Shown here piece after piece: positions 21,640 to 42,690 of a DNA stretch of 64,000 nt. The translations under genes were made by a program, and so were the position numbers. How positions within the stretch are numbered: position 1 is the stretch's first letter; every line of letters begins with the position of its first letter. Under the pieces are notes generated by a model. It was not told where the DNA came from and did not search any database. It saw only the letters and a program-made list of their open reading frames with translations. The stretch comes from Chloroflexus sp. Y-396-1 (GTDB lineage Bacteria > Chloroflexota > Chloroflexia > Chloroflexales > Chloroflexaceae), in assembly GCF_000516515.1 (NCBI RefSeq), contig NZ_KI911784.1:3132881-3196880 (forward strand). Reading direction: 5' to 3'.

Positions 21640-23215
21640 GTTTTCACCAGAGGTTGAACAGTTTATTCACCAGCTCGTCTCACCGCTCACGACGATACAG
21701 AGTGCGGTCGATTTGCTCGCTCATCATTATGGTAATAGCCCGGATCAGCGGTTGAATAATTTAATCGCCGCGTTACAGCGTTCCAGTATACGTTTACGAC
21801 AGTTTGCGCAGAATCTGAACGGGCGAGTGCAGCAGGAAGGCGAGGAGATTGTGGTACGTCTCCCATTGACATTGTACCGTCAGGCCGATGCGACGGCCAC
21901 TACGCCAGCGACCCTACCGACCGCAGCGTTGGGCGCTGGCCAGGCAGTGCTGGTTGGCGAAGCTGTGCTCGATGAATTGGCCGGTGTATTGCAGACGGTT
22001 GGCTGGCAGGTGGAACGAGTGCGGTCGTGCGTCACAGCGCTTGATATGGCTCGGTATCGGCGGCCACGTCTGTTGGTATTTGCCGATGCGGAAGCAGATA
22101 TTGATCCGGTAGAGTGTGCTCAAATTGTACGCACCGATCCGGAAACGTGCGATGTTGTAGTAGCGCTGGCCGGTCATGGTCGCCCGTCACGCGACATTGC
22201 AGGCATTCCATGGCTTGATCTCCAGCAGCCAGTGCTCGAACAGATGTATCGTCTGCTGTATACGCACGTTCGCGCTGAACATGGATTGCCTCGTATCTTG
22301 CTGGTTGATGATGAACCGGACATTCGATTTATTCTTGGGCAACAGTTGATTAGCAATGGTTTTGTTATAGTCACTGCACCTGATGTCAGAACTGCGCTCC
22401 AATTGATCCGTGAGCAGTATTTTGATCTGATCATCCTTGATCGGCTCTTGCCTGATGGTGATGGGTTACAAGTCTTGCAAACGTTACGGGCAGCCTCGAC
22501 TGGGCGAATGATACCGGTGATCCTCCTCTCGGCGGTGAGTGCACTTGATGAACGGGTACGAAGTTTACAGCAAGGCGCCGATGACTACGTGGTGAAGCCG
22601 TGTAGTGTGACGGAATTAGCTGCCCGCATCCGTGCCATCTTGCAGCGGAGTGAACGTGAACGTAGTGTCAATCCGATTTCACACTTACCTGGCAATGCTG
22701 TCATTGAGCAGGTCATTCGCGAACGATTGATGAAACAAGAACCGTTTGCCGTTAGTTACATCGGTCTCAATAATTTTAAGGGGTATAATGATTACTATGG
22801 TTTTTTCAAAGGTGATGCTGTCATCTTGCATACTGCTCGTGTGTTGACCAAAGTAGTTCACTGGTATGGCGCATCAGGCGACTTTCTTGGTCACATTGGT
22901 GGTGATGATTTTGTTCTGGTGACAACCCTTGAACGGGCGCAGCAGATTGGGCAGGCTGTGATCGAGCAGTTTGATGCGACAATCCCATATTTCTATTCGG
23001 CAGAGGACCGCGCACGGGGCTACATCCAGGGTTTTGACCGGCAGGGGCAACCATGCCAGTTCCCGTTGTTGAGTCTCTCGATAGTAATTGTACCGGTGTC
23101 ACCCGCTCGCTACCAACAGCCTTATGAAATTGCAATGCGGGCAGTTGCCATCAAGCGCCAGTTGAAGTTGGAAAATGGGAGTTGTGTCATTGTCGATGAT
23201 GGAGAAAGAGGATAG
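21632..23215 (+). CDS. Receiver-GGDDF protein, possible diguanylate cyclase
   Basis: A 527-residue protein. The N terminus resembles a dimerisation helix lacking the phospho-His (FIHQLVSPLTTIQSAVDLLA), followed by a degenerate receiver-like region (~95-210). A full receiver follows with Asp270 (LIILDRLLPDGDG) and Lys in YVVKPCSV. The C-terminal ~180 residues form a GGDEF-type domain with GGDDF at 423-427. The Glu-to-Asp change at the fourth position is compatible with activity in some relatives but needs testing. The upstream block NNFKGYNDYYGFFKGD matches the usual DxxNDxxGHxxGD region only partly. Confidence 0.8.
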   Translation: MGKFSPEVEQFIHQLVSPLTTIQSAVDLLAHHYGNSPDQRLNNLIAALQRSSIRLRQFAQNLNGRVQQEGEEIVVRLPLTLYRQADATATTPATLPTAALGAGQAVLVGEAVLDELAGVLQTVGWQVERVRSCVTALDMARYRRPRLLVFADAEADIDPVECAQIVRTDPETCDVVVALAGHGRPSRDIAGIPWLDLQQPVLEQMYRLLYTHVRAEHGLPRILLVDDEPDIRFILGQQLISNGFVIVTAPDVRTALQLIREQYFDLIILDRLLPDGDGLQVLQTLRAASTGRMIPVILLSAVSALDERVRSLQQGADDYVVKPCSVTELAARIRAILQRSERERSVNPISHLPGNAVIEQVIRERLMKQEPFAVSYIGLNNFKGYNDYYGFFKGDAVILHTARVLTKVVHWYGASGDFLGHIGGDDFVLVTTLERAQQIGQAVIEQFDATIPYFYSAEDRARGYIQGFDRQGQPCQFPLLSLSIVIVPVSPARYQQPYEIAMRAVAIKRQLKLENGSCVIVDDGERG

Positions 23216-32714: not shown

Positions 32715-35700
32715 ATGACAAATGCATCCCATATTGTGCTACCAGAGTGGATAACCCTGGCAACAATGATGATCGACACCCAACAGTTTTCAGATTTGCA
32801 AGCTACTGCCCTCTCTGCGTTGCGACTGGCTTTTCCGCATTATGATGTCGATCTTCAGTGGTCGTTTCAAGGTCGTCCACAGGAAATAAGCGATGGTGTC
32901 GTTCATCCGATCGCGGCTGACGAAGTCTATGGTTGGCTGACGATCCGCCCAGGTTCGTTGACGACCGGCGAGTTAGCGATCCTGAAGGTTATTGAGCGCC
33001 TGATCATTGCCGCTTATGATCGGGTGCGGCAGCGGATTGATCGGCAAGGTTGGCGACAGCGCCTCCAGATTGAGTTTGACACTTTGCGGGATTGTCATGA
33101 TCCTGACCTGATCTGCCGTCAGTTTGGGCAATTGATAGGTCAAATCGTGGGATGGCCGTTGCATATTGGGGTGGCCATCCCATTTCAACGTAGTGCCTGG
33201 ATTGAACAGATAGCCCACTATGATCCGCAAGAAGGAGGCTGTAGTTTATCCGGTCGGCGATTCTGGACGGCTGAGACCGATCTTAGTAGCATCGTGATGA
33301 AGCTGAGTATGCCGATCAGCTCAACCAGATACCTACACGACTGTGCCCATTATCAGGTTCGCCCACATGCCATCTGGCAGGACTCTGCTCCGGAGTATTG
33401 GTCAGGGGTTCCCATTCGTTTTGATGGTGAAACGGTAGGTATAACCTACGCATACACAATGACCCGATCAACCGTCGGCGAGCTGCAACAGCAGATCGTT
33501 AATGAAGGTCTGTACCTGATCAGTCAGTTATTGCGACCGATCCTCTTGCATCGGGAAGCAGAGCGTACGAGCCGTCAACAGCGGATGTGGCAAGAGTTGA
33601 TTGCTGCCGGTATGCAGATTTTTGATCCTGATCGGGCACTACAAGTGATGTTGGAGCGCAGTTGTCAGTTGCTGGATGTGCAAGTAGGTAGTCTGTTTAT
33701 CGTTGATGAACAGCAGAGCGAGTTGGTTCTTCGTTATGTGGCCGGTCAACATATGCAGCAATTGGTTGGCATGCGTCTGCCGATGACTCATGGCATTCTC
33801 GGTCAGTCGCTGGCGCTGGGTAAGCCTGTTATTGTCAACAATGCGGTCGGCGATCCACGACGCAGTTACCGGCTGGATCAGATAACCGGTCTAGCGTGCC
33901 ACAATCTGATCAGTATGCCGTTTACCTCACCGGCTGGTGTGCGCGCCTGCCTTCAATATATCAATCGCCAGGAAGCAGCACCGTTTATTGATGCTGATAT
34001 TGATCGTATCAATGCGATTGTTGCAGCTATGAGTCTGGTCATCGACCATGCTCAGCGCCTCACCCAGGTTGAAACAGGTATCATCTTGCATGCTCGTGAT
34101 CTTGATCGACGCAACGCTGACCTTCAATCGGTGTTAGCCCTTAGTCGTGACCTGTTGATCGAACGAACACCTGATCAGCTTTTTCTGCTGATTATCAACG
34201 CGATCTGTGAGCGGATACGGTTCCAGGCGGCAGCCCTGTTTGTAAATCGACGTGAAAGTAGTCTGCATCCGGCATTGGAGTGTGTTGTCGCCACGGATCG
34301 TCTCGCTAGTGAATTTCCCCTCGGTTTGCGTTTAGCTGCTAACCGACTTGATATGTTGGCTCACGAGTGGTCGCTTGGCGAGAACTGTTTTCTCCTCAAC
34401 CGGCGCAGTGCCAGTTTTGCTGCTTTGTTTGATGTACCAGCACCGGTACCAGAACAACTTATGGATTTTGGTACGACTCGGTGGAATGCCGATGATCTGC
34501 TCGTCGTGCTTCTGCGAGCGCCTGACCAGCGGGTTCAGGCGGTGTTGCTCCTCGATCAACCGCTCAATGGTCAACGTCCGTCATCTGATGACATCCGGGC
34601 GCTGATTATTTATGCCGGTATTGCCGGTTCGGCGATTGAGATTGCGCTCTTGCGACACCGTCAGCAACGTAGTTTGGAGCGTCTGACAGCGTTGAACGGC
34701 CTGGGTATGGTGATCAATTCGCAATCGTTGCCTGAGCCGCAGGTGTTGGCGATGACAATGCGCGGCATGCTTGAGATGGTCGATGGCAATTGGGCGCAGG
34801 TTGTGTTGTTTGATCCTGTTCAAGATACGCTGCGGTTCGATCAGTCTGTTGGCGTGACTATTCTTTCGCAAGATGCGGTTTTAGCCCTGGCCCGTCGGGC
34901 GTTGACGCAGCGGCGTCCGGTCTTTCGTTCAGCGACAACCGTTGCGCTGCCGCTCCGTGGTACCCAACAGCCAATTGGTGTGATCGTGATTGGCGGAGAG
35001 CACTCCCTCGATTCTACCGATATCGAGATGTTGATGCTTTACGTAACTCAGACGGCTATCGCTATCGAGAGTATGCGTTTACTTGAGGTGGTACGGCGCG
35101 CACGCGATAATCTGTCACGGGTTATGGCGGCGATTGAAGACGGGCTTATTCTCTACAGTGCTGACGGAACAATCGTCGTGACGAATGAGACCTTCTATCG
35201 TCTTGCGCAGACAAATGCATGGTCACCGCCATTGTTTCAGGTTGGCATGCTCCATATCGAACAGTTGATCACGCAATGGGCAGAGCAATGTCGTCTGGAA
35301 GCCGATACGGTTGCTTCGCTGTGCCGCTCGCTTTCTACTGCTGGCACGCAAGGTGAATTGCGAGGAAATGATAGGGTTTTTGCCTGGAAGGTAACATCGG
35401 CTGGTGATCTCGTTTCTGGTCGTATTCCTGCCTTTTTGTTAACGATTCGTGATGTAACTGAGGCAAAAAAGGTTGAGCAGTTGCGCGAAGACTTGACCCA
35501 TACCCTGGTACACGATTTTAAGAATCCGCTAACTGTTATCAAACTTTCCTTTGAGCGAATAGAACAGGAGTTAGGCGATCTCCTCACTGAACGCCAGAAA
35601 AAGGCTATTTTGATTGGTCAGAACAGCACGAATCGGCTAATTAACCAGGTTGGAATGATGCTTGATATTGGTCGGCTGGAAAGTGGTCAAATGCCACTTA

Positions 35701-36236
35701 AGCCGGGCCCGTTGCCGGTTGCCAGTATAATTGAGCAGATGACTGAGCGATTATCGATCCAGGCTCAAGAGAAGCAAGTCCAGATCGTTCATCGGATTGA
35801 TCCACAGGTGCGCTGGTTGTTTGCCGATTCTGATATTATCGCCCGTGTGTTCCAAAATTTGCTCGATAATGCGCTCAAATTCAGTGCTCAAGGCGATCTG
35901 ATTTCGCTTGAAGTTCAGGTAAAACCGGATCAGCGAGAACCACAGCTTGTTACCTTGTCTGATGAGTTAGCGGTTCTGATTCCAGGTGATCGGGTTGCCC
36001 ATATTGTTGTACGCGATCAGGGGCCAGGTATTCCTCCTGAAGATCAGGATTTTATCTTTACCCGCTTCAGTCAGGCTGGGCGTAAACGTAGTGAAGGTAG
36101 TGGGTTGGGCTTATTCTTCTGCCGGCTGGCAGTTGAGGCGCATCAAGGAATGATCTGGGTCGAAAGTTCGCCTGGTCAGGGCAGCGCATTTCATTTTACG
36201 CTGCCGCTGGCTGAAATCTGGTCTGGTGAACGCTAA
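32715..36236 (+). CDS. Large multi-GAF sensor histidine kinase
   Basis: An 1173-residue soluble kinase. An N-terminal region (~1-280) is of uncertain fold. GAF-like domains lie at about 285-450 (LLDVQVGSLFIVDEQQ), 470-640 and 650-780. A PAS-like domain follows (~795-910, VMAAIEDGLILYSADGTI). HisKA has His933 in an unusual VHDFKNPLTVI box, HATPase has VFQNLLDNALKFS, RDQGPGIPPED and GSGLGLFFCRL. There is no receiver and no adjacent regulator, so it is an orphan kinase. GGAG 8 nt before the ATG fixes the start. Its stop is 3 nt from the convergent SEC-C gene. Confidence 0.88.
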   Translation: MTNASHIVLPEWITLATMMIDTQQFSDLQATALSALRLAFPHYDVDLQWSFQGRPQEISDGVVHPIAADEVYGWLTIRPGSLTTGELAILKVIERLIIAAYDRVRQRIDRQGWRQRLQIEFDTLRDCHDPDLICRQFGQLIGQIVGWPLHIGVAIPFQRSAWIEQIAHYDPQEGGCSLSGRRFWTAETDLSSIVMKLSMPISSTRYLHDCAHYQVRPHAIWQDSAPEYWSGVPIRFDGETVGITYAYTMTRSTVGELQQQIVNEGLYLISQLLRPILLHREAERTSRQQRMWQELIAAGMQIFDPDRALQVMLERSCQLLDVQVGSLFIVDEQQSELVLRYVAGQHMQQLVGMRLPMTHGILGQSLALGKPVIVNNAVGDPRRSYRLDQITGLACHNLISMPFTSPAGVRACLQYINRQEAAPFIDADIDRINAIVAAMSLVIDHAQRLTQVETGIILHARDLDRRNADLQSVLALSRDLLIERTPDQLFLLIINAICERIRFQAAALFVNRRESSLHPALECVVATDRLASEFPLGLRLAANRLDMLAHEWSLGENCFLLNRRSASFAALFDVPAPVPEQLMDFGTTRWNADDLLVVLLRAPDQRVQAVLLLDQPLNGQRPSSDDIRALIIYAGIAGSAIEIALLRHRQQRSLERLTALNGLGMVINSQSLPEPQVLAMTMRGMLEMVDGNWAQVVLFDPVQDTLRFDQSVGVTILSQDAVLALARRALTQRRPVFRSATTVALPLRGTQQPIGVIVIGGEHSLDSTDIEMLMLYVTQTAIAIESMRLLEVVRRARDNLSRVMAAIEDGLILYSADGTIVVTNETFYRLAQTNAWSPPLFQVGMLHIEQLITQWAEQCRLEADTVASLCRSLSTAGTQGELRGNDRVFAWKVTSAGDLVSGRIPAFLLTIRDVTEAKKVEQLREDLTHTLVHDFKNPLTVIKLSFERIEQELGDLLTERQKKAILIGQNSTNRLINQVGMMLDIGRLESGQMPLKPGPLPVASIIEQMTERLSIQAQEKQVQIVHRIDPQVRWLFADSDIIARVFQNLLDNALKFSAQGDLISLEVQVKPDQREPQLVTLSDELAVLIPGDRVAHIVVRDQGPGIPPEDQDFIFTRFSQAGRKRSEGSGLGLFFCRLAVEAHQGMIWVESSPGQGSAFHFTLPLAEIWSGER

Positions 36237-36239
36237 CGG

Positions 36240-37079
36240 TCAGGCTCCGAGCAGGCGCTGACGGGTCTCTTCAATAAAACGCTGAATGCGATCAGGGTCG
36301 GGTTTATCTGTTGGCAACATTAGGACGAAATGACTGAATATTTCTGAACGCTCGCGTAACAGGTCTAGCCAGCCGGCCTCTGGTCGTTCACGTCGTAACG
36401 CCTCCAGATGAAGGTTTGCGAATGTCTGAATCGGCTCGGCGGTATCGGGCGTGAGATGAGCGGCAGGGCCGGCAAGGTAGTAATTCGGTGTTGTTTGGCC
36501 GAGTGGTGTATCGACCGGTACCAGATGACCGACAATGACCTCATTGAGTTCCAGTCGCAGTGAGGCATGGCTGTCGGCCAATGGCACGGCTTCATCATGT
36601 AGTAAGTCGCGCAGACTGGCGCCGGCATTCGGATGAAGTTTCTCGACGCGATAAGGTCGTAATCTGACATCAACCCAGGTCGGTAAGAGTTGACGTTCAA
36701 GTGGGGAAAGATCGCTCTCTGCTGTCTGAGCTGCCAGACGTTCGACAAGGGTTTTCCCGTCAGGTTGTCGATAATCAAATGCAAACCACACTATAAACCG
36801 GTCGGCGCTGTAGCTTTCACGCTGGTTTAGTTCGGCCAGTTGCGCAAACTGGTAACGTTGTTGCCAGTAACGATCAAAGGCATTTTGCAGGTCAGTAGCG
36901 TCAGCAGTGGACGCCATCGCCAGGATGCGTTGTAAGAGTTGATCTTGCGCATTCCGCAATCGTAGTTGCTGACTGCGCCACTCTTCTTCAATCCGTAAAT
37001 GGCAATCTTTGTATTTGCGGCCACTACCGCAGTGGCAAGGATCATTTCGCCCTAACTTTCGCGTCTTTATTTGGTTCAT
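36240..37079 (-). CDS. SEC-C motif protein
   Basis: A 279-residue protein whose N terminus is a SEC-C zinc-binding motif, GRNDPCHCGSGRKYKDCH (Cys-x-Cys-x8-Cys-His). SEC-C modules occur on SecA and on many stand-alone proteins, where they bind zinc and mediate protein contacts. The remainder has no motif I recognise. It is the last gene of a minus-strand run after the FGE-like gene (19-nt gap), and its end nearly abuts the convergent kinase gene. Confidence 0.8.
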   Translation of the reverse strand: MNQIKTRKLGRNDPCHCGSGRKYKDCHLRIEEEWRSQQLRLRNAQDQLLQRILAMASTADATDLQNAFDRYWQQRYQFAQLAELNQRESYSADRFIVWFAFDYRQPDGKTLVERLAAQTAESDLSPLERQLLPTWVDVRLRPYRVEKLHPNAGASLRDLLHDEAVPLADSHASLRLELNEVIVGHLVPVDTPLGQTTPNYYLAGPAAHLTPDTAEPIQTFANLHLEALRRERPEAGWLDLLRERSEIFSHFVLMLPTDKPDPDRIQRFIEETRQRLLGA

Positions 37080-37098
37080 TTGCGTCTAACTCCTTACG

Positions 37099-37908
37099 CT
37101 ATTCCAGTTTCAAAGCGAGCCGTATGCCTAGAAACTGATTACGCATCGTGGGTTGGAGGCGGAAACGACAGGCACAGCGTGCATACCCTTGTGGATTGGC
37201 GTAACATCCACCGCGCAAAATACGTCGTCCTTGAGCAGTTGGATCTTCGCGGCCATCGTTTGGCCGATACGGGTATGGCCGATCAAGCGAGGAAGTCCAT
37301 TCCCAAACATTACCAGCCATGTCCTCGACCCCGTAGGGACTGCGTCCGTCAGGATAGGCGCCTGGAGGGTTAGGAGCAAACCTACCACTCTCGCGTGTAT
37401 TGGCGTAGTCGGGATGAAACGTTTCGCCCCATGGGAAGCGACGGCCATCACTGCCACGCGCTGCGTGCTCCCATTCAGCCTCAGTCGGCAGGCGGAAACG
37501 AAGGGTGGACGGTGGTGTAACTGGTTGGCCGCTCGGATCGATCAGGTGAACAGAGCAATCTGGTTGTTGATTCAGCCAGGTGCAGAAGGCTTGCGCTTCA
37601 TACCAGTTGACATCGGTGACCGGCAGTGCCAGTAATTCGGGCGGTGGAGTTGGGCCGTGCCAGAGTGGTGGCGGTGGCACAGCGCCAGCCGCAACCGCCT
37701 GTGCGTAGAGCGCATTGCTGACCGGTGTTTGGGCGATGGCAAATGCTGGTAGCGATAGTTCATGCTGCGGCGTCTCTTCGCGGTAGCTTTCGCGGGTACC
37801 ACCATAGCGACGGGCAAGGTCGTTCAATTCCTGGATCGGTGTGCCCATGCGAAAGGTGCGGGCCGGGATGTAGATCATAACCGGTAATAATGCGGTCAAG
37901 GTGGTCAT
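37099..37908 (-). CDS. SUMF1/FGE-like domain protein
   Basis: A 269-residue protein covering one formylglycine-generating-enzyme-type fold. It has MIYIPARTFRMGTP, HELSLPAFAIAQTPVSNALYA, PVTDVNWYEAQAFCTWLN, RFRLPTEAEWEHAARG, DMAGNVWEWTSSL and RRILRGGCYAN. The fold is used by sulfatase-modifying FGEs, EgtB-type enzymes and many proteins of unknown activity. Cys occurs in RGGC and ARCACRF near the end, but I cannot confirm the FGE Cys pair. No sulfatase is nearby. The start overlaps the upstream gene as ATGA, so translation is coupled. Confidence 0.83.
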   Translation of the reverse strand: MTTLTALLPVMIYIPARTFRMGTPIQELNDLARRYGGTRESYREETPQHELSLPAFAIAQTPVSNALYAQAVAAGAVPPPPLWHGPTPPPELLALPVTDVNWYEAQAFCTWLNQQPDCSVHLIDPSGQPVTPPSTLRFRLPTEAEWEHAARGSDGRRFPWGETFHPDYANTRESGRFAPNPPGAYPDGRSPYGVEDMAGNVWEWTSSLDRPYPYRPNDGREDPTAQGRRILRGGCYANPQGYARCACRFRLQPTMRNQFLGIRLALKLE

Positions 37909-38513
37909 CGTTGGTAAATCCGATTGAGTCGATCCAGCTCTCGCCGGTAGATTGTCTCGGCAAAATGTTCAATGGCACTTACGTTTTGCAGCGCTTCGTA
38001 ACCACGTTGCAGAAACGAGTGTATCTGACCAATGCCGACCAGGTGTGCGACAACATGCGAACGGCGGAGCGCCAGCCCTAGAATATGAGAGCGTGAAAGA
38101 CGAAAAACGTTGTATAACGTCGTCCTTACCAACGTGAGTTGCCGTAAACGCTCGTCGTACTTGTCGGCAATCCGGTAGAAGTGTTCATAGGTAATTTCGT
38201 CGAAATCGGTCCCTACATTCGCCTGCCACATACGTCGGGCCAGGTCCTCATCGAGTTGATTCGTGAGGTCGAGTAATTCTAACACTTCTTCCAGATCGCG
38301 TAGATGGACACCTGGTAGCAAACCGATGAAGTGTTGCAAGCGGCGCCCTTCCTGGTCGCGTTGGCTAAAATCACGTGGGCCATAGATATCGTTGAAGAAA
38401 AATTCGCCTAACGGTTCGTACACCGGCACTTCGGCCAGATCACGGTAATCGCGCCGCAGTCGGTTCGATTGAAAGATTTGGAGTGCGAGACGATACTGAC
38501 GGAGCGTACTCAT
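37905..38513 (-). CDS. Small protein resembling the FFLEE-motif family
   Basis: A 202-residue, mostly helical protein. The stretch EFFFNDIYGPRDFSQRD resembles the FFLEE-motif proteins (aromatic-rich FF, then YGPxDFxxRD), and the remainder is helical and rich in Arg and Leu. Function is unknown. The ATG at 38513 overlaps the upstream TPR-gene stop as ATGA, and its own stop overlaps the FGE-like start as ATGA, so the three are translated as a coupled set. The family match is recalled from the motif only. Confidence 0.65.
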   Translation of the reverse strand: MSTLRQYRLALQIFQSNRLRRDYRDLAEVPVYEPLGEFFFNDIYGPRDFSQRDQEGRRLQHFIGLLPGVHLRDLEEVLELLDLTNQLDEDLARRMWQANVGTDFDEITYEHFYRIADKYDERLRQLTLVRTTLYNVFRLSRSHILGLALRRSHVVAHLVGIGQIHSFLQRGYEALQNVSAIEHFAETIYRRELDRLNRIYQR

Positions 38514-41500
38514 GGCAAGCGTTCGATTTGGGCAAGAGCACGTTGTCCCCATTCACTGGTGGGTTCGCGGCTAATCAGTGTCTGGTAGGCGTTACGGGCC
38601 GCAGTAAAGTCAGCCTGATCTTCTGCGATCAGTCCACTATAGAAAATCGCTTCACTGTAGTCTGGGTTGAGGGTAATCGCTTTTTGGATGGCCTGCAATG
38701 CGCTTTCGGTGCGTCCTTGCGCGTAATAGGCTCGACCTAGCCAGTAGTGGGCTTCGGGAAAATTGTTCTGCAGCGCGATAGCCCGATTGAGGTCACGTAT
38801 CGCCAGATCAAGATCACCATCACGGATGGCGAGAAGCGCCCGTCGATAGAAGCTCTCGGCGATGCGATCATTGGCGCCGATGGCGGCATCGAAGGCGGCG
38901 CGTGCTTCAGCGAAACGTCCGGCCTCTTGCAGTAATTTGCCTCGGAAGAGATGAGCTTCAGCGTAGTTGCTTTTTTGCTGGATAGCCTGTTCTACCGTTT
39001 GTAGTGCCTCTTCACTACGACCGAGAGCGTACTGGGTTTGGGCCAATCCTAATAGAGCCTCCGGATATTGTGGTTGCAGTTCCAGGGCGCGTTGATACGT
39101 AGCTAATGCGCGGGTAAGATTTCCGCTGCGCAAGAGTGCTTCACCAAGCCAGAATTGGGCGGTGGCACTGTCACTACCGCCCGGCAGCGCCGCAGCAGTT
39201 TCAAAGTAAGCTAGGGCAACGCCCCAATTTCCTCTAGCGCTTGCAATTTCGCCCAGCCCAATATGCGCGGCGATGGATTGTGGATCAGTGGCGATAGCCT
39301 GCTGATACGATTGCTCGGCGGCGGTCAGGTCGTTGCGACGGCGTGCAACCTCGGCCAAAGTCAGGAGTGCATTTACCTGGGCAGTGATCGCTTCGGGATC
39401 GGTGCGGTTAGCGACCAGATTCAACGTGCGCTGCGCGGTTTGCGTTGCGGCTTCAAGCCTATTCCCAACCAGATAAGCACGGGCTAAAAGCTGGTGGGCT
39501 GTTGCCGAATTGGGATCGAGCGCCAGTGCACGTTCCAGAGCCTGGATGGCAACTGGTGCTGCATTCCCCCCGATGGCAGCCTGGCCGATGATGAGTAATC
39601 GGTCGAGATCGTTTATTCCCTGTCCAAGGGCAATCCGATATTGCTCGAGTGCCCGCTGTGGTTGATTAAGAGGTCCCTCGTACAATTCGGCTAGCCGCAA
39701 ACGCGCATCAAGATTGCGCTCATCAAAGGCCAGGGCATCGCGGAGCATACGTTCAGCAGATTGGATATCGCCTAAGCGAATGTAGGTCTCGCCTAACTCA
39801 AAGGCGGCAACCGTTGAGCGGGGATCAAGCGTGAGAGCATCACGGTAGACTTCAGCAGCTTCTTCGGCGTAGCCAGCATCGTTGTAGAGGCGAGCCAGTT
39901 CAATGGCTGCTTCTGCATATTCTACTGCCAGCGGAACCAGGAGCCGTTCGGCTTCAGCAAAACCACTGGCGCCACTAAGCCGGAGGGCGCGGGCCAGATG
40001 TACAACGGTGTATGGTGTCTTTTGCCATTCTACCAGCGCCCGCCAGTGCTGGATGGCTGTTGGCCAATCACGTTCCCGTTCGGCCACACGCGCCAGCATC
40101 AAATGAGCCGGAAAGAACTGATTGTTCCGTTCGAGTGCTTGCCGTAACCACTCTTTTGCGCTAGCCTGATCGTTACGGACGAGGGCAACCATGCCGATAC
40201 CGGCGTAGCCGTCGGGTAGTTGCGGAGCAAGGTCAATAACTCGCCGGTAACTCTGGATGGCTTCGTCATACTGCTCGTTGATCCGGAATGCAAAACCGAG
40301 CGCCAACAGCGTCAGGACATCATCAGGTTGTTGTTCGCGCAATCGTTGTAAGGTTGTAATACTCGGGTTAGCATTTCCCCCCGTACCAAAAAGGGCGGCT
40401 ATCATTTGATCGATCGGCCCTGGTTTGGTACGCCCTTCAACCGTCTGTACAGCCGCTTCAACCAGCGCTAATACCAGTTTCTGGCGTCGCAATATCTCTT
40501 CGCTCCGCTCGGCCTGACCGGTTGCCATCAGACCGTTACCGGGAAAGATTGCGGCGTCGCCGGTGGCTCGTTGGCGCCACAGATTGATAGCTCGCGTGCT
40601 GTGTTCAGTTGCGGTACGCAGTTGATCGCGTATTCGGCGTAGATCGTTCGCCGATGGAAGTGGATTCGCTGCTTCGAGTGCCCAGTAGAGCGGGCCGGTC
40701 AAGGGTAAGTGCGTTTCGAGGTCGGCTAAGGCACGTTCTTCAAGAAACACGGCGGTCAGGCGTGACTCATACGCTGCCAGGAAAGTGTACGGTACTCGTC
40801 CTGTAGTTGCTGTCTTTGCCGATTCAAATCGTGCCAACGCGGCCTGCGCGTCGGTGATGCGCCCACTGTCGCGATAGGCGGTGGCGAGTAGCAACTCAAG
40901 TTCTGGGTTGATTGGTAACAGGTTACGCGCCTGTTCGAGATCAGACACTGCATCGCGGGCACGCTGTTCACGCAATGCCCACAATGCAAGGTTGACCCGC
41001 AATTGACCAAGGTCACGACCATCGAGCAGGTCGATAGCTTCGGCAAAATAGCGCGGTGCATCTGCGCTGCCGGCATCCAACAGGATCGCACCGAGATTAT
41101 TGGTCAAGAGGGCGCGGTCACCATTGGCAATATTGATCGCCGCCTGATATTCGGTTGCAGCACCGCTGTACCATCCCCTTGCCCATAGGAGATTACCCCG
41201 CAGGACATGCAACAAAAGTGGATTCACCTGGGGCGCGTTCTCAACCAGGCGTTGGAGCTGATCAACTGCCAGGTCTGCTTCGCCATGATGATAAGCGGCT
41301 AACGCCAAGAGATACGGTACTAACGTGGTCTGACCATTTATTGGATCGGTACTGATGATAAACTGGTTTGGCAGCGCAAAGCGCATCTTAAAGCCGTACC
41401 AGGTCTGACTCACGTCAATGTTGTGAGGGGTGTAAATAATCTCGGGACGCAGACTTAAGCTGTCGAGCCGCCCACCAGCAATGACTGAACCGCTCACGAG

Positions 41501-41851
41501 GAGGTCGGCGTTTAATCGTTGAGCGAGCGCGAGCGCTTCAGCACCGTTGGCCGGTCGAGTTTCGGTCAGGATGATATGGATGAGATTGCCCCCTTGGGCC
41601 TGTAGTTGTCGGGTAAGCGCACTGGCAATCTGACTACCGGTACGACCATCCTGATCGGTGAATGGGGTGATCACAATCACGAAACGCGGATCGGTGGGTC
41701 GAAAGATAAGAAAGAGAACGAATCCAAGCACGATGGCTACCAGTGCGAGCAACAGCCAGCGTAGGCGGGAGCGTCGCAGTGGTGAAGTTTGGTCTGACAC
41801 CCGTTCTGTAGAAGATGGTTCTGAGTCCTTCCGTTGCCATGGCCATCGCAT
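38510..41851 (-). CDS. Large membrane-anchored TPR protein
   Basis: An 1113-residue protein. One transmembrane helix near residues 28-50 (WLLLALVAIVLGFVLFLIF) is followed by a ~100-residue domain with an alternating beta/alpha look (FVIVITPFTDQDGRTGSQIA ... ADLLVSGSVIAGG), reminiscent of FlgO/TolB-N-like modules. The rest is a long TPR solenoid, some 20 or more 34-residue repeats (for example SFYRRALLAIRDGDLDLAI, NFPEAHYWLGRAYYAQGR). A scaffolding role is inferred. ATG 41851 has AAGGAG at good spacing. It leads the four-gene cluster. Confidence 0.85.
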   Translation of the reverse strand: MRWPWQRKDSEPSSTERVSDQTSPLRRSRLRWLLLALVAIVLGFVLFLIFRPTDPRFVIVITPFTDQDGRTGSQIASALTRQLQAQGGNLIHIILTETRPANGAEALALAQRLNADLLVSGSVIAGGRLDSLSLRPEIIYTPHNIDVSQTWYGFKMRFALPNQFIISTDPINGQTTLVPYLLALAAYHHGEADLAVDQLQRLVENAPQVNPLLLHVLRGNLLWARGWYSGAATEYQAAINIANGDRALLTNNLGAILLDAGSADAPRYFAEAIDLLDGRDLGQLRVNLALWALREQRARDAVSDLEQARNLLPINPELELLLATAYRDSGRITDAQAALARFESAKTATTGRVPYTFLAAYESRLTAVFLEERALADLETHLPLTGPLYWALEAANPLPSANDLRRIRDQLRTATEHSTRAINLWRQRATGDAAIFPGNGLMATGQAERSEEILRRQKLVLALVEAAVQTVEGRTKPGPIDQMIAALFGTGGNANPSITTLQRLREQQPDDVLTLLALGFAFRINEQYDEAIQSYRRVIDLAPQLPDGYAGIGMVALVRNDQASAKEWLRQALERNNQFFPAHLMLARVAERERDWPTAIQHWRALVEWQKTPYTVVHLARALRLSGASGFAEAERLLVPLAVEYAEAAIELARLYNDAGYAEEAAEVYRDALTLDPRSTVAAFELGETYIRLGDIQSAERMLRDALAFDERNLDARLRLAELYEGPLNQPQRALEQYRIALGQGINDLDRLLIIGQAAIGGNAAPVAIQALERALALDPNSATAHQLLARAYLVGNRLEAATQTAQRTLNLVANRTDPEAITAQVNALLTLAEVARRRNDLTAAEQSYQQAIATDPQSIAAHIGLGEIASARGNWGVALAYFETAAALPGGSDSATAQFWLGEALLRSGNLTRALATYQRALELQPQYPEALLGLAQTQYALGRSEEALQTVEQAIQQKSNYAEAHLFRGKLLQEAGRFAEARAAFDAAIGANDRIAESFYRRALLAIRDGDLDLAIRDLNRAIALQNNFPEAHYWLGRAYYAQGRTESALQAIQKAITLNPDYSEAIFYSGLIAEDQADFTAARNAYQTLISREPTSEWGQRALAQIERLP

Positions 41852-41889
41852 AGATCCGCTCCTTACCACTGTCGGTCATACCAGCTCCT

Positions 41890-41917
41890 ATTGTAAGCAG
41901 TTTGGAGGATATTTCAA
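41890..41917 (-). promoter_or_regulatory. Promoter of the TPR-FGE-SEC-C cluster
   Basis: Minus strand TTGAAA (41912-41917), 16-bp spacer, TACAAT (41890-41895), about 38 bp before the TPR start. Confidence 0.6.
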
Positions 41918-42398
41918 GCTGTAATGGTGGGGATGACACGACGGTGAGCAGATAGAATAGCTTACAGCGTCGGACGAAAGTGTCCGGGGTTTGTCATACT
42001 ATTTTCTGTAGTGCATTTAAGCAGATATTTGATGGCGTATGTGGGAAGAGGTAACGTATCTGTTATCCATATCCACCAGTACAATAGCCATGGGATGCGT
42101 CTGATGGCCGCGATGCGAGGTGAGCAGCGTGGACATAGTTGATGGCAGGTAGACGGGTCCCACCGGTAGGGGCGTAGCGCCGTCGTGCCCCTACCCGGGA
42201 TTCCGTCCGCGCTAGGTCGGTCTTCCATTGTGTGGGAGCCATTAACGGGTTTCATCCGCCTTGGACGTGACGACAAGATATTCGGATAGGCACTTATTGC
42301 TGCGCCTATTGATCTATGGTGGTTCACGATGCCACCAGGGGAATGGCGCTACTCACCGATGATGCCCATCACTCGTTACGGGGGTAATCCTTCACGCT

Positions 42399-42690
42399 CT
42401 CAGAACCTGATCAAAAACTTCTCATCATGCACCTGCCGTGCCCGTGCGACTATTGCGCGAGAGTTTCCAGCGTTCTTTCGCTCAGTCCCGCGTTCCCCCT
42501 TCCTCTCCCCCACGGGGAGAGGAAGGGGGCCAGGGGGAAGGTGAGGGCCGCCAGGCGTACTCCGCAACACAGGCTCTGAAACCATTGCAATCCTGTTCCA
42601 GCGCGTCGTGGAGATGTATGCCCCGCAGCGTTCCCCTGACCATTATGGTGATGTCGTGGTCGAGCCTCAGCAAAAGTCCAGGTTCTTGAT
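42399..42690. repeat. Dispersed element B, compact copy
   Basis: About 290 bp with the same flanks as the 28-kb copy (cctgatcaaaaacttctcat, ccgtgcccgtgcgactattg, then gcgtactccgcaacacaggc and cagcgttcccctgaccatta). Its core has a single hairpin (ccttcctctcccccacgggg) in place of the tandem array. Confidence 0.75.

What the first reader, a model, noticed from the sequence alone, without database searches (positions are those of the whole stretch)
36240..41851. TPR / FFLEE-like / SUMF1-like / SEC-C gene cluster
A membrane TPR protein, a small helical protein, an FGE-fold protein and a zinc SEC-C protein follow one promoter. The first two junctions are ATGA overlaps and the third is a 19-nt gap. 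I know of no described pathway with this set. FGE-fold enzymes modify or oxidise substrates, TPR and SEC-C mediate protein contacts, so a modification complex is conceivable.
Basis: partly seen in the sequence, partly recalled or inferred. Interest (0 to 1): 0.55.

Follow-up and report, generated by a model that had tools for sequence, protein, structure and literature searches.

The report
Chloroflexus TPR-FFLEE-FGE-SEC-C operon
Four neighbouring genes in a filamentous photosynthetic bacterium form a conserved operon, but the full set was found only in its own genus, the FGE-like protein lacks the known enzyme's key cysteines, and the shared job of the genes is still unknown.

Summary
Four minus-strand genes (TPR, FFLEELY, FGE-fold, SEC-C) lie at 41851-36240 with two ATGA overlaps and a 19-nt gap. 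The promoter block and both overlaps are conserved across Chloroflexus. All four genes in order occur in 8 of 8 Chloroflexus genomes and 0 of 33 other family genomes. The older unit is TPR-FFLEE-FGE (21 of 41 family genomes); TPR and FGE are neighbours without FFLEE in 5 more.

A four-part oxidising complex is not supported. None of 45 FGE orthologues compared has the catalytic C-x4-C pair in its motif region. The genome's only sulfatase-family hit lacks the target motif. The TPR repeats are predicted outside the membrane, the other three proteins inside. FGE occurs in 12 genomes without TPR or FFLEE; in Roseiflexaceae it follows SbcC (11 of 12 loci). SEC-C joined only in Chloroflexus.

Best reading: a translationally coupled operon making a membrane-anchored extracytoplasmic TPR scaffold, a helical FFLEE protein and a non-classical FGE-fold binding protein. 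Not excluded: a new cysteine-using FGE-fold enzyme, since all 45 keep at least two of three cysteines in a C-x9-C-x-C signature.

The parts
41890..41917 (-). promoter block TTGAAA-16-TACAAT
   Evidence: 10 of 12 consensus matches; both hexamers at the same spacing in 7 of 7 Chloroflexus upstream regions; block unique in own genome at up to 3 mismatches
41859..41864 (-). ribosome-binding site AAGGAG, 7 nt before the TPR start
   Evidence: sequence; AAGGAG in 6 of 7 Chloroflexus upstream regions, GAGGAG in the seventh
38510..41851 (-). TPR protein, 1113 aa: basic N-tail, membrane helix 32-50, TPR array
   Evidence: Pfam/NCBIfam TPR hits; hydropathy and charge suggest N-in, TPR-out
37905..38513 (-). 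FFLEELY motif protein, 202 aa, all-helical
   Evidence: NF047641 183 bits; AlphaFold2 pLDDT 88.4, all helix; start overlaps the TPR stop (ATGA)
37099..37908 (-). FGE/C-type-lectin-fold protein, 269 aa, signature RGGCYANPQGYARCACRFR, no C-x4-C pair
   Evidence: PF03781 163 bits; motif counts over 45 unique orthologues; start overlaps the FFLEE stop (ATGA)
36240..37079 (-). SEC-C protein, 279 aa: SecA-like metal-binding motif, helical linker, OB-like beta barrel (weak evidence)
   Evidence: PF02810; SecA metal-binding chains in PDB; AlphaFold2 pLDDT 88.6; OB-like matches to about residues 134-213, Z 5.2 at best

Best explanation
The four genes are one operon, assembled in steps. Shown by sequence comparison: (1) the conserved core is a single-pass membrane TPR protein with, in most Chloroflexaceae examined, FFLEE and/or an FGE-fold protein encoded directly behind it, in Chloroflexus with overlapping start and stop codons; (2) in Chloroflexus a SEC-C gene stands at the 3' end; (3) the FGE-fold protein lacks the copper/catalytic cysteine pair of formylglycine-generating enzymes. 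Inferred: the TPR protein (N-tail inside, repeats outside) is an extracytoplasmic protein-binding scaffold of the cell envelope. The FGE-fold protein works in the cytoplasm as a ligand- or peptide-binding adaptor on the C-type-lectin face, as catalytically dead FGE relatives do (recalled). FFLEE is a cytoplasmic helical partner of the TPR protein, perhaps through its basic cytoplasmic tail. SEC-C is an accessory of the ribosome/Sec route rather than a core part. In other genera the TPR gene follows a response-regulator/GGDEF gene, which suggests signalling input to envelope assembly. It is not a sulfatase- or ergothioneine-type modification complex.
For: Four-gene order in 8 of 8 Chloroflexus genomes; TPR-FFLEE-FGE in 21 of 41 family genomes; TPR-FFLEE linked (within 6 kb, same strand) in 39 of the 46 FFLEE-bearing genomes among 82 of the order; TPR-FGE linked without FFLEE in 5. 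ATGA overlaps 8 of 8 in Chloroflexus, and a direct 4-nt TPR/FGE overlap in the two FFLEE-less genomes of genus g4. Promoter hexamers in 7 of 7 upstream regions. N-in/TPR-out charge pattern in Chloroflexus; no membrane helix in the other three window proteins. No C-x4-C in the motif region in 45 of 45 FGE orthologues; N238, R244, R248 and R250 invariant. Response regulator-GGDEF gene directly upstream of TPR in 11 of 11 loci fetched from other genera (one scanned).
Against: The mechanism is inferred; no member has a function that I found tested, and FFLEE matched no solved fold. FGE occurs in 12 genomes with neither TPR nor FFLEE and sits behind SbcC in the Roseiflexus family, so TPR is not its obligate partner and a DNA-linked role is possible. 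At least two of three signature cysteines are always kept, which could mean catalysis or metal binding. In Roseiflexus an aminotransferase gene stands between TPR and FFLEE (4 of 4 loci), and in 7 Herpetosiphon-group genomes all three genes are apart. In this genome the RR-GGDEF orthologue lies elsewhere. Topology rests on hydropathy and charge only, and the charge bias is weak or absent in several other genera. Many assemblies are fragmented, so 'unlinked' is less sure than 'linked'.
Confidence: 0.42

Rival explanations
1. Modification complex: the FGE-fold protein oxidises or modifies a cysteine or sulfur compound, with TPR and SEC-C presenting substrates and FFLEE as partner.
For: PF03781 fold; nearest NCBIfam models include the enzymes EgtB, SenA and PvdO, all far below cut-off; at least 2 of 3 signature cysteines kept in 45 of 45.
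Against: Catalytic C-x4-C pair absent from the motif region in 45 of 45; two of the orthologues have a C-x4-C elsewhere, at C109; only sulfatase-family hit in the genome lacks C-x-P-x-R; no second domain beside PF03781; TPR predicted outside, others inside; the genes are distributed differently.
Confidence: 0.12
2. The FGE-fold protein is a genome-maintenance or housekeeping adaptor that hitchhikes behind long genes (SbcC in the Roseiflexus family, TPR in Chloroflexaceae); the operon reflects shared expression, not shared function.
For: FGE orthologue in 66 of 82 genomes of the order at E <= 1e-40, 12 of them without TPR or FFLEE matches; directly behind SbcC in 11 of 12 loci fetched from that family.
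Against: TPR-FGE linkage holds in 26 of 41 family genomes, with conserved start/stop overlaps in Chloroflexus and a 4-nt overlap in genus g4.
Confidence: 0.25
3. Remnant or domesticated diversity-generating retroelement (DGR) target: the C-terminal motif sits where DGR variable regions do, and the genome has a DGR.
For: One reverse transcriptase with an FGE-domain target and a template repeat in this genome, 15 of 15 mismatches at template adenines; Treponema variable protein among PDB matches.
Against: No DNA match of the window FGE to that template; the motif is conserved, not diversified, over 45 orthologues.
Confidence: 0.03
4. Anti-phage or conflict system.
For: SEC-C motif matches PADLOC 'E2' models, best E 5.5e-07, over about 35 residues; multicellular bacteria carry many conflict systems (PMC10907252, passages).
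Against: The PADLOC matches of SEC-C cover the motif only; those of TPR cover repeats only; FGE and FFLEE match no PADLOC model; genus-wide conservation at one gene order.
Confidence: 0.03

Closest known systems
Formylglycine-generating enzyme (SUMF1/FGE)
   Same: FGE/C-type-lectin fold, PF03781 163 bits
   Different: no C-x4-C catalytic/copper pair in the motif region in 45 of 45 orthologues compared; no C-x-P-x-R sulfatase found in the genome
ToxD (PDB 7spq) and CalU17 (7ml6), best PDB sequence matches of the FGE-fold protein
   Same: sequence match over most of the length, 97 and 71 bits
   Different: belong to biosynthetic clusters (recalled), not to a membrane TPR operon
GldK/PorK and SUMF2, FGE-fold proteins regarded as non-catalytic (recalled)
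   Same: matched in the PDB sequence searches
   Different: GldK model 69.7 bits against cut-off 350; no hydrophobic signal segment here
FFLEELY motif protein NF047641
   Same: 183 bits, cut-off 55
   Different: of 57 FFLEE loci mapped, 8 (this order) have the TPR gene within four genes; the other 49 do not, some of them cut by contig ends
YecA/AscA and YchJ, SecA-like metal-binding domain proteins
   Same: SEC-C motif; PDB matches to SecA and YchJ tails
   Different: the match covers the motif only; the rest looks like helices plus an OB-like barrel (weak)

Membership tests
Formylglycine-generating enzyme | FGE-sulfatase fold | tested here: met
   PF03781 163.1 bits
Formylglycine-generating enzyme | active-site cysteine pair spaced C-x4-C (Cys336/Cys341; passages of PMC4505483) | tested here: not met
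   0 of 45 unique orthologues have it in the motif region; N238 in 45 of 45 and A243 in 43 of 45 stand at the two positions (the mapping of positions rests on recall of the human motif). Two have a C-x4-C elsewhere, at C109
Formylglycine-generating enzyme | C-x-P-x-R sulfatase substrate in the genome | tested here: not met
   one PF00884 hit, no [CS]-x-[PA]-x-R in that protein; other substrates not tested
EgtB/SenA/OvoA | family score and fused DinB-type iron-binding domain | tested here: not met
   EgtB 107.7 bits against cut-off 360, SenA 94.7 against 420, OvoA 37.6 against 400; only PF03781 matches
GldK/PorK | equivalog score | tested here: not met
   69.7 bits against 350
DGR target protein | variable region matching a template repeat with adenine-specific changes | tested here: not met
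   no DNA match to the genome's template repeat; motif conserved
FFLEELY motif protein NF047641 | curated score cut-off | tested here: met
   183.2 bits against 55
SEC-C motif PF02810 | C-x-C-G-S-G-x-K-x-x-x-C-H motif over the cut-off | tested here: met
   36.9 bits against 20.4; the three cysteines and the histidine invariant in 14 aligned sequences
SEC-C motif PF02810 | binds zinc or iron | not testable with these tools
   needs purified protein
PrsT (XrtA/PEP-CTERM TPR protein) | equivalog score | tested here: not met
   231.5 bits against 312.2
PADLOC defence systems | whole-protein match to a defence gene | tested here: not met
   only the SEC-C motif and TPR repeats give partial matches

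The most novel reading that the evidence does not exclude
The FGE-fold protein is a new class of FGE-fold enzyme of Chloroflexales. Its thiols have moved from C-x4-C to a C-x9-C-x-C signature that forms a different metal or redox site, and it acts on a protein or small molecule handled by the TPR/FFLEE pair, or beside SbcC in the Roseiflexus family.
Probability: 0.1. Interest if true: 0.7.

Novelty: new variant of a known kind. Interest (0 to 1): 0.38.

Why it matters
An order-wide FGE-fold family without the classical cysteine pair, with its own conserved cysteine signature and two alternative operon partners (a membrane TPR protein or SbcC), gives a testable entry into what non-classical FGE-fold proteins do. 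The TPR-FFLEE link is also the only consistent partner seen here for the FFLEELY family, whose function is not stated in its model. For the finding as given, it corrects a four-part complex to a two- or three-gene core plus a genus-specific addition.

Tried and rejected
DGR variable protein: rejected. Sulfatase maturation: rejected. Ergothioneine/selenoneine type: rejected on scores and domains. Defence system: no whole-gene match. Three cysteines as a strict metal site: weakened, since each is lost in some lineage, though never more than one of the three in any of 45.

FFLEE structure: confident helical model, but no PDB match at E <= 0.001 (best 0.37; best Z 5.6) and none by sequence at E <= 1. 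SEC-C model: no Foldseek match at E <= 0.001 (best 0.027); OB-like barrel matches only at Z about 5. FFLEE neighbours in other groups (57 of the 77 loci found were mapped) gave no single partner; ten neighbours scanned included an alpha/beta hydrolase, an acyl-CoA synthetase, luciferase-like, DsbA-like and epimerase proteins. SEC-C neighbours outside Chloroflexus: a glycosyltransferase cluster in 8 of the 9 loci fetched, at varying distance and strand (0 to 4.9 kb); four of its members were scanned, all GT2.

Literature: FFLEE/FFLEELY gave 2 unrelated papers; Chloroflexus + formylglycine-generating + TPR gave 1, a caspase survey; SEC-C + ribosome + zinc + YecA and SEC-C motif + ribosome + SecA gave none; DGR + formylglycine-generating + Chloroflex gave 3; the FGE copper search gave 3; sulfatase-modifying factor + SbcC gave none; SecA-like metal-binding/YecA/iron gave 28, 5 listed; Chloroflexus + tetratricopeptide + gliding + response regulator gave 1, a review of cyanobacterial pili. 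I read passages of PMC4505483, PMC10907252 and PMC8076867; the rest I saw as listings only.

One search (a pattern search used to learn the genome handle) found nothing and carries no evidence. In one search the DGR target gave no NACHT match: only the FGE domain and a weak STAND-type hit below its cut-off, so I no longer call it NACHT.

Rows dropped: FGE motif counts use 45 unique orthologues out of 50 rows; 4 duplicates and 1 paralogue were left out. The 45 come from 45 of the 66 FGE-bearing genomes. The SEC-C count of 36 leaves out, by my choice, motif-only matches; all 41 family genomes match at E <= 0.001. The promoter alignment used 7 of 8 Chloroflexus genomes, since one contig starts inside TPR.
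Full report
What is there. On the minus strand the window holds TPR (41851->38510), FFLEE (38513->37905), FGE-fold (37908->37099) and SEC-C (37079->36240) genes. Family calls are clear: TPR repeats, PF03781, PF02810 and NF047641. Junctions are -4, -4 and +19 nt. A sigma-70-like block at 41917..41890 precedes an AAGGAG site and the TPR start. SEC-C ends 3 nt from the convergent GAF-histidine kinase gene. No terminator-like site was found between them.

Is it more than chance. Among 82 genomes of the order, the TPR N-terminal region is found in 69 (E <= 1e-8), the FGE orthologue in 66 (E <= 1e-40) and FFLEE in 46 (E <= 1e-20). Of 41 family genomes, 36 have a long SEC-C match; the rest match in the motif or less. 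The full order TPR-FFLEE-FGE-SEC-C is in 8 of 8 Chloroflexus genomes, this one included, and in 0 of 33 other family genomes, where the long SEC-C matches lie on other contigs. TPR-FFLEE-FGE is in 21 of 41. TPR-FGE without any FFLEE is in 5, from 4 genera. TPR-FFLEE is linked (within 6 kb) in 39 of 46 FFLEE genomes. Seven Herpetosiphon-group genomes have all three genes unlinked, and 12 genomes have FGE alone. Fragmented assemblies make 'unlinked' less sure than 'linked'. Both ATGA overlaps are kept in 8 of 8 Chloroflexus loci; the FGE/SEC-C gap is 18-131 nt. The promoter hexamers at 16-nt spacing are in 7 of 7 upstream regions, and the block is unique in this genome at up to 3 mismatches.

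The TPR protein. It has a basic N-tail, one membrane helix (residues 32-50, mean hydropathy 3.1) and then the TPR array. The charge bias predicts tail inside and repeats outside. It is clear in Chloroflexus and weak or absent in some other genera. In 11 of 11 TPR loci fetched from other genera or families, the gene directly upstream belongs to one family, a response regulator with a GGDEF domain (one scanned by Pfam; two relatives). Five Chloroflexus loci show the same neighbour; this genome and L073 (of the size of C. aurantiacus, by recall) do not, and one contig starts too late to tell. In this genome its 76% orthologue lies at 22098-23084, far from the cluster. The motif reads GGDDF in the three proteins checked. 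In Roseiflexus an aminotransferase gene stands between TPR and FFLEE (4 of 4 loci mapped; one scanned).

The FGE-fold protein. FGE activity is changed by mutation of Cys336, Cys341, Ser333, His337 or Tyr340, and the enzyme uses copper (PMC4505483, passages). Over 45 unique orthologues from the order, no C-x4-C occurs in the motif region. Two have one elsewhere, at C109. N238, R244, R248 and R250 are invariant. C235, C245 and C247 are kept in 40, 42 and 42 of 45, with at least two of the three in every sequence: three in 34, two in 11. The genome's one sulfatase-family hit has no C-x-P-x-R. The other two FGE hits in the genome belong to a DGR. So sulfatase maturation is unlikely to be its job, and the protein is neither EgtB nor SenA. 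The motif is conserved rather than diversified and does not match the DGR template, so it is not a present DGR target.

A second context for FGE. In 20 loci fetched where FGE is not next to TPR, 11 have FGE directly behind an SbcC/Rad50-like gene on the same strand, with approximate gaps of -13 to +113 nt. Pfam on two of these gave AAA_23 and SbcC Walker B. All 11 are from the family of Roseiflexus, out of 12 loci fetched from it; none of the other 8 loci has it. FGE therefore has a life of its own and is not an obligate part of a TPR/FFLEE/SEC-C machine.

FFLEE and SEC-C. FFLEE folds confidently as helices but resembles no solved fold found. It also occurs in other Chloroflexota and in Beta- and Gammaproteobacteria with varied neighbours. 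Among the 82 genomes of this order it was not found without TPR (46 of 46), though the genomes are related. SEC-C carries a SecA-like metal motif and perhaps an OB-like barrel (weak). A review raises the possibility that proteins with such domains are accessory Sec components (PMC8076867, passage). Outside Chloroflexus it was found away from the other three genes.

How it most likely works. Shown: gene order, overlaps, conserved promoter, stepwise assembly, absence of the classical catalytic pair. Inferred: an extracytoplasmic TPR scaffold, a cytoplasmic FFLEE partner, an FGE-fold binding adaptor, and a SEC-C accessory at the ribosome/Sec side. Confidence is high for the anatomy and low for the mechanism. 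The main rival is that FGE is a portable housekeeping or DNA-linked protein that rides behind long genes.

Verdict. The open point of interest is the order-wide FGE-fold family with its own cysteine signature and two alternative partners.

Noticed in passing
own genome about 3863600-3867699 (L011, L012), outside the window: A diversity-generating retroelement: target protein with a C-terminal FGE domain (weak STAND-NTPase hit below cut-off upstream of it; its frame starts before the fetched piece), reverse transcriptase and downstream template repeat; 15 of 15 mismatches over 109 bp fall on template adenines.
   Followed up: partly
L247-L250, L256-L260, L262, L263: SbcC/Rad50-like gene directly upstream of the FGE orthologue in the family of Roseiflexus, with apparent overlap in 7 of 11.
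   Followed up: partly
L267-L277, L074, L075, L077-L079: Response regulator-GGDEF gene (GGDDF in the three checked) directly upstream of the TPR gene; in this genome the orthologue lies apart at 22098-23084.
   Followed up: partly
window 32715-36236 (+): Large GAF-histidine kinase gene convergent with SEC-C, 3 nt apart; the same neighbour follows SEC-C in all 7 genus-mate loci.
   Followed up: no
window 42165-42195 and 42486-42538: Inverted repeats in the 866-bp gap upstream of the operon: a GGTAGGGGC/GCCCCTACC palindrome and a 25-nt arm pair.
   Followed up: no
L104-L111: A GT2-type glycosyltransferase lies near SEC-C in 8 of 9 non-Chloroflexus loci fetched, at 0 to 4.9 kb and on either strand; four were scanned.
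   Followed up: no
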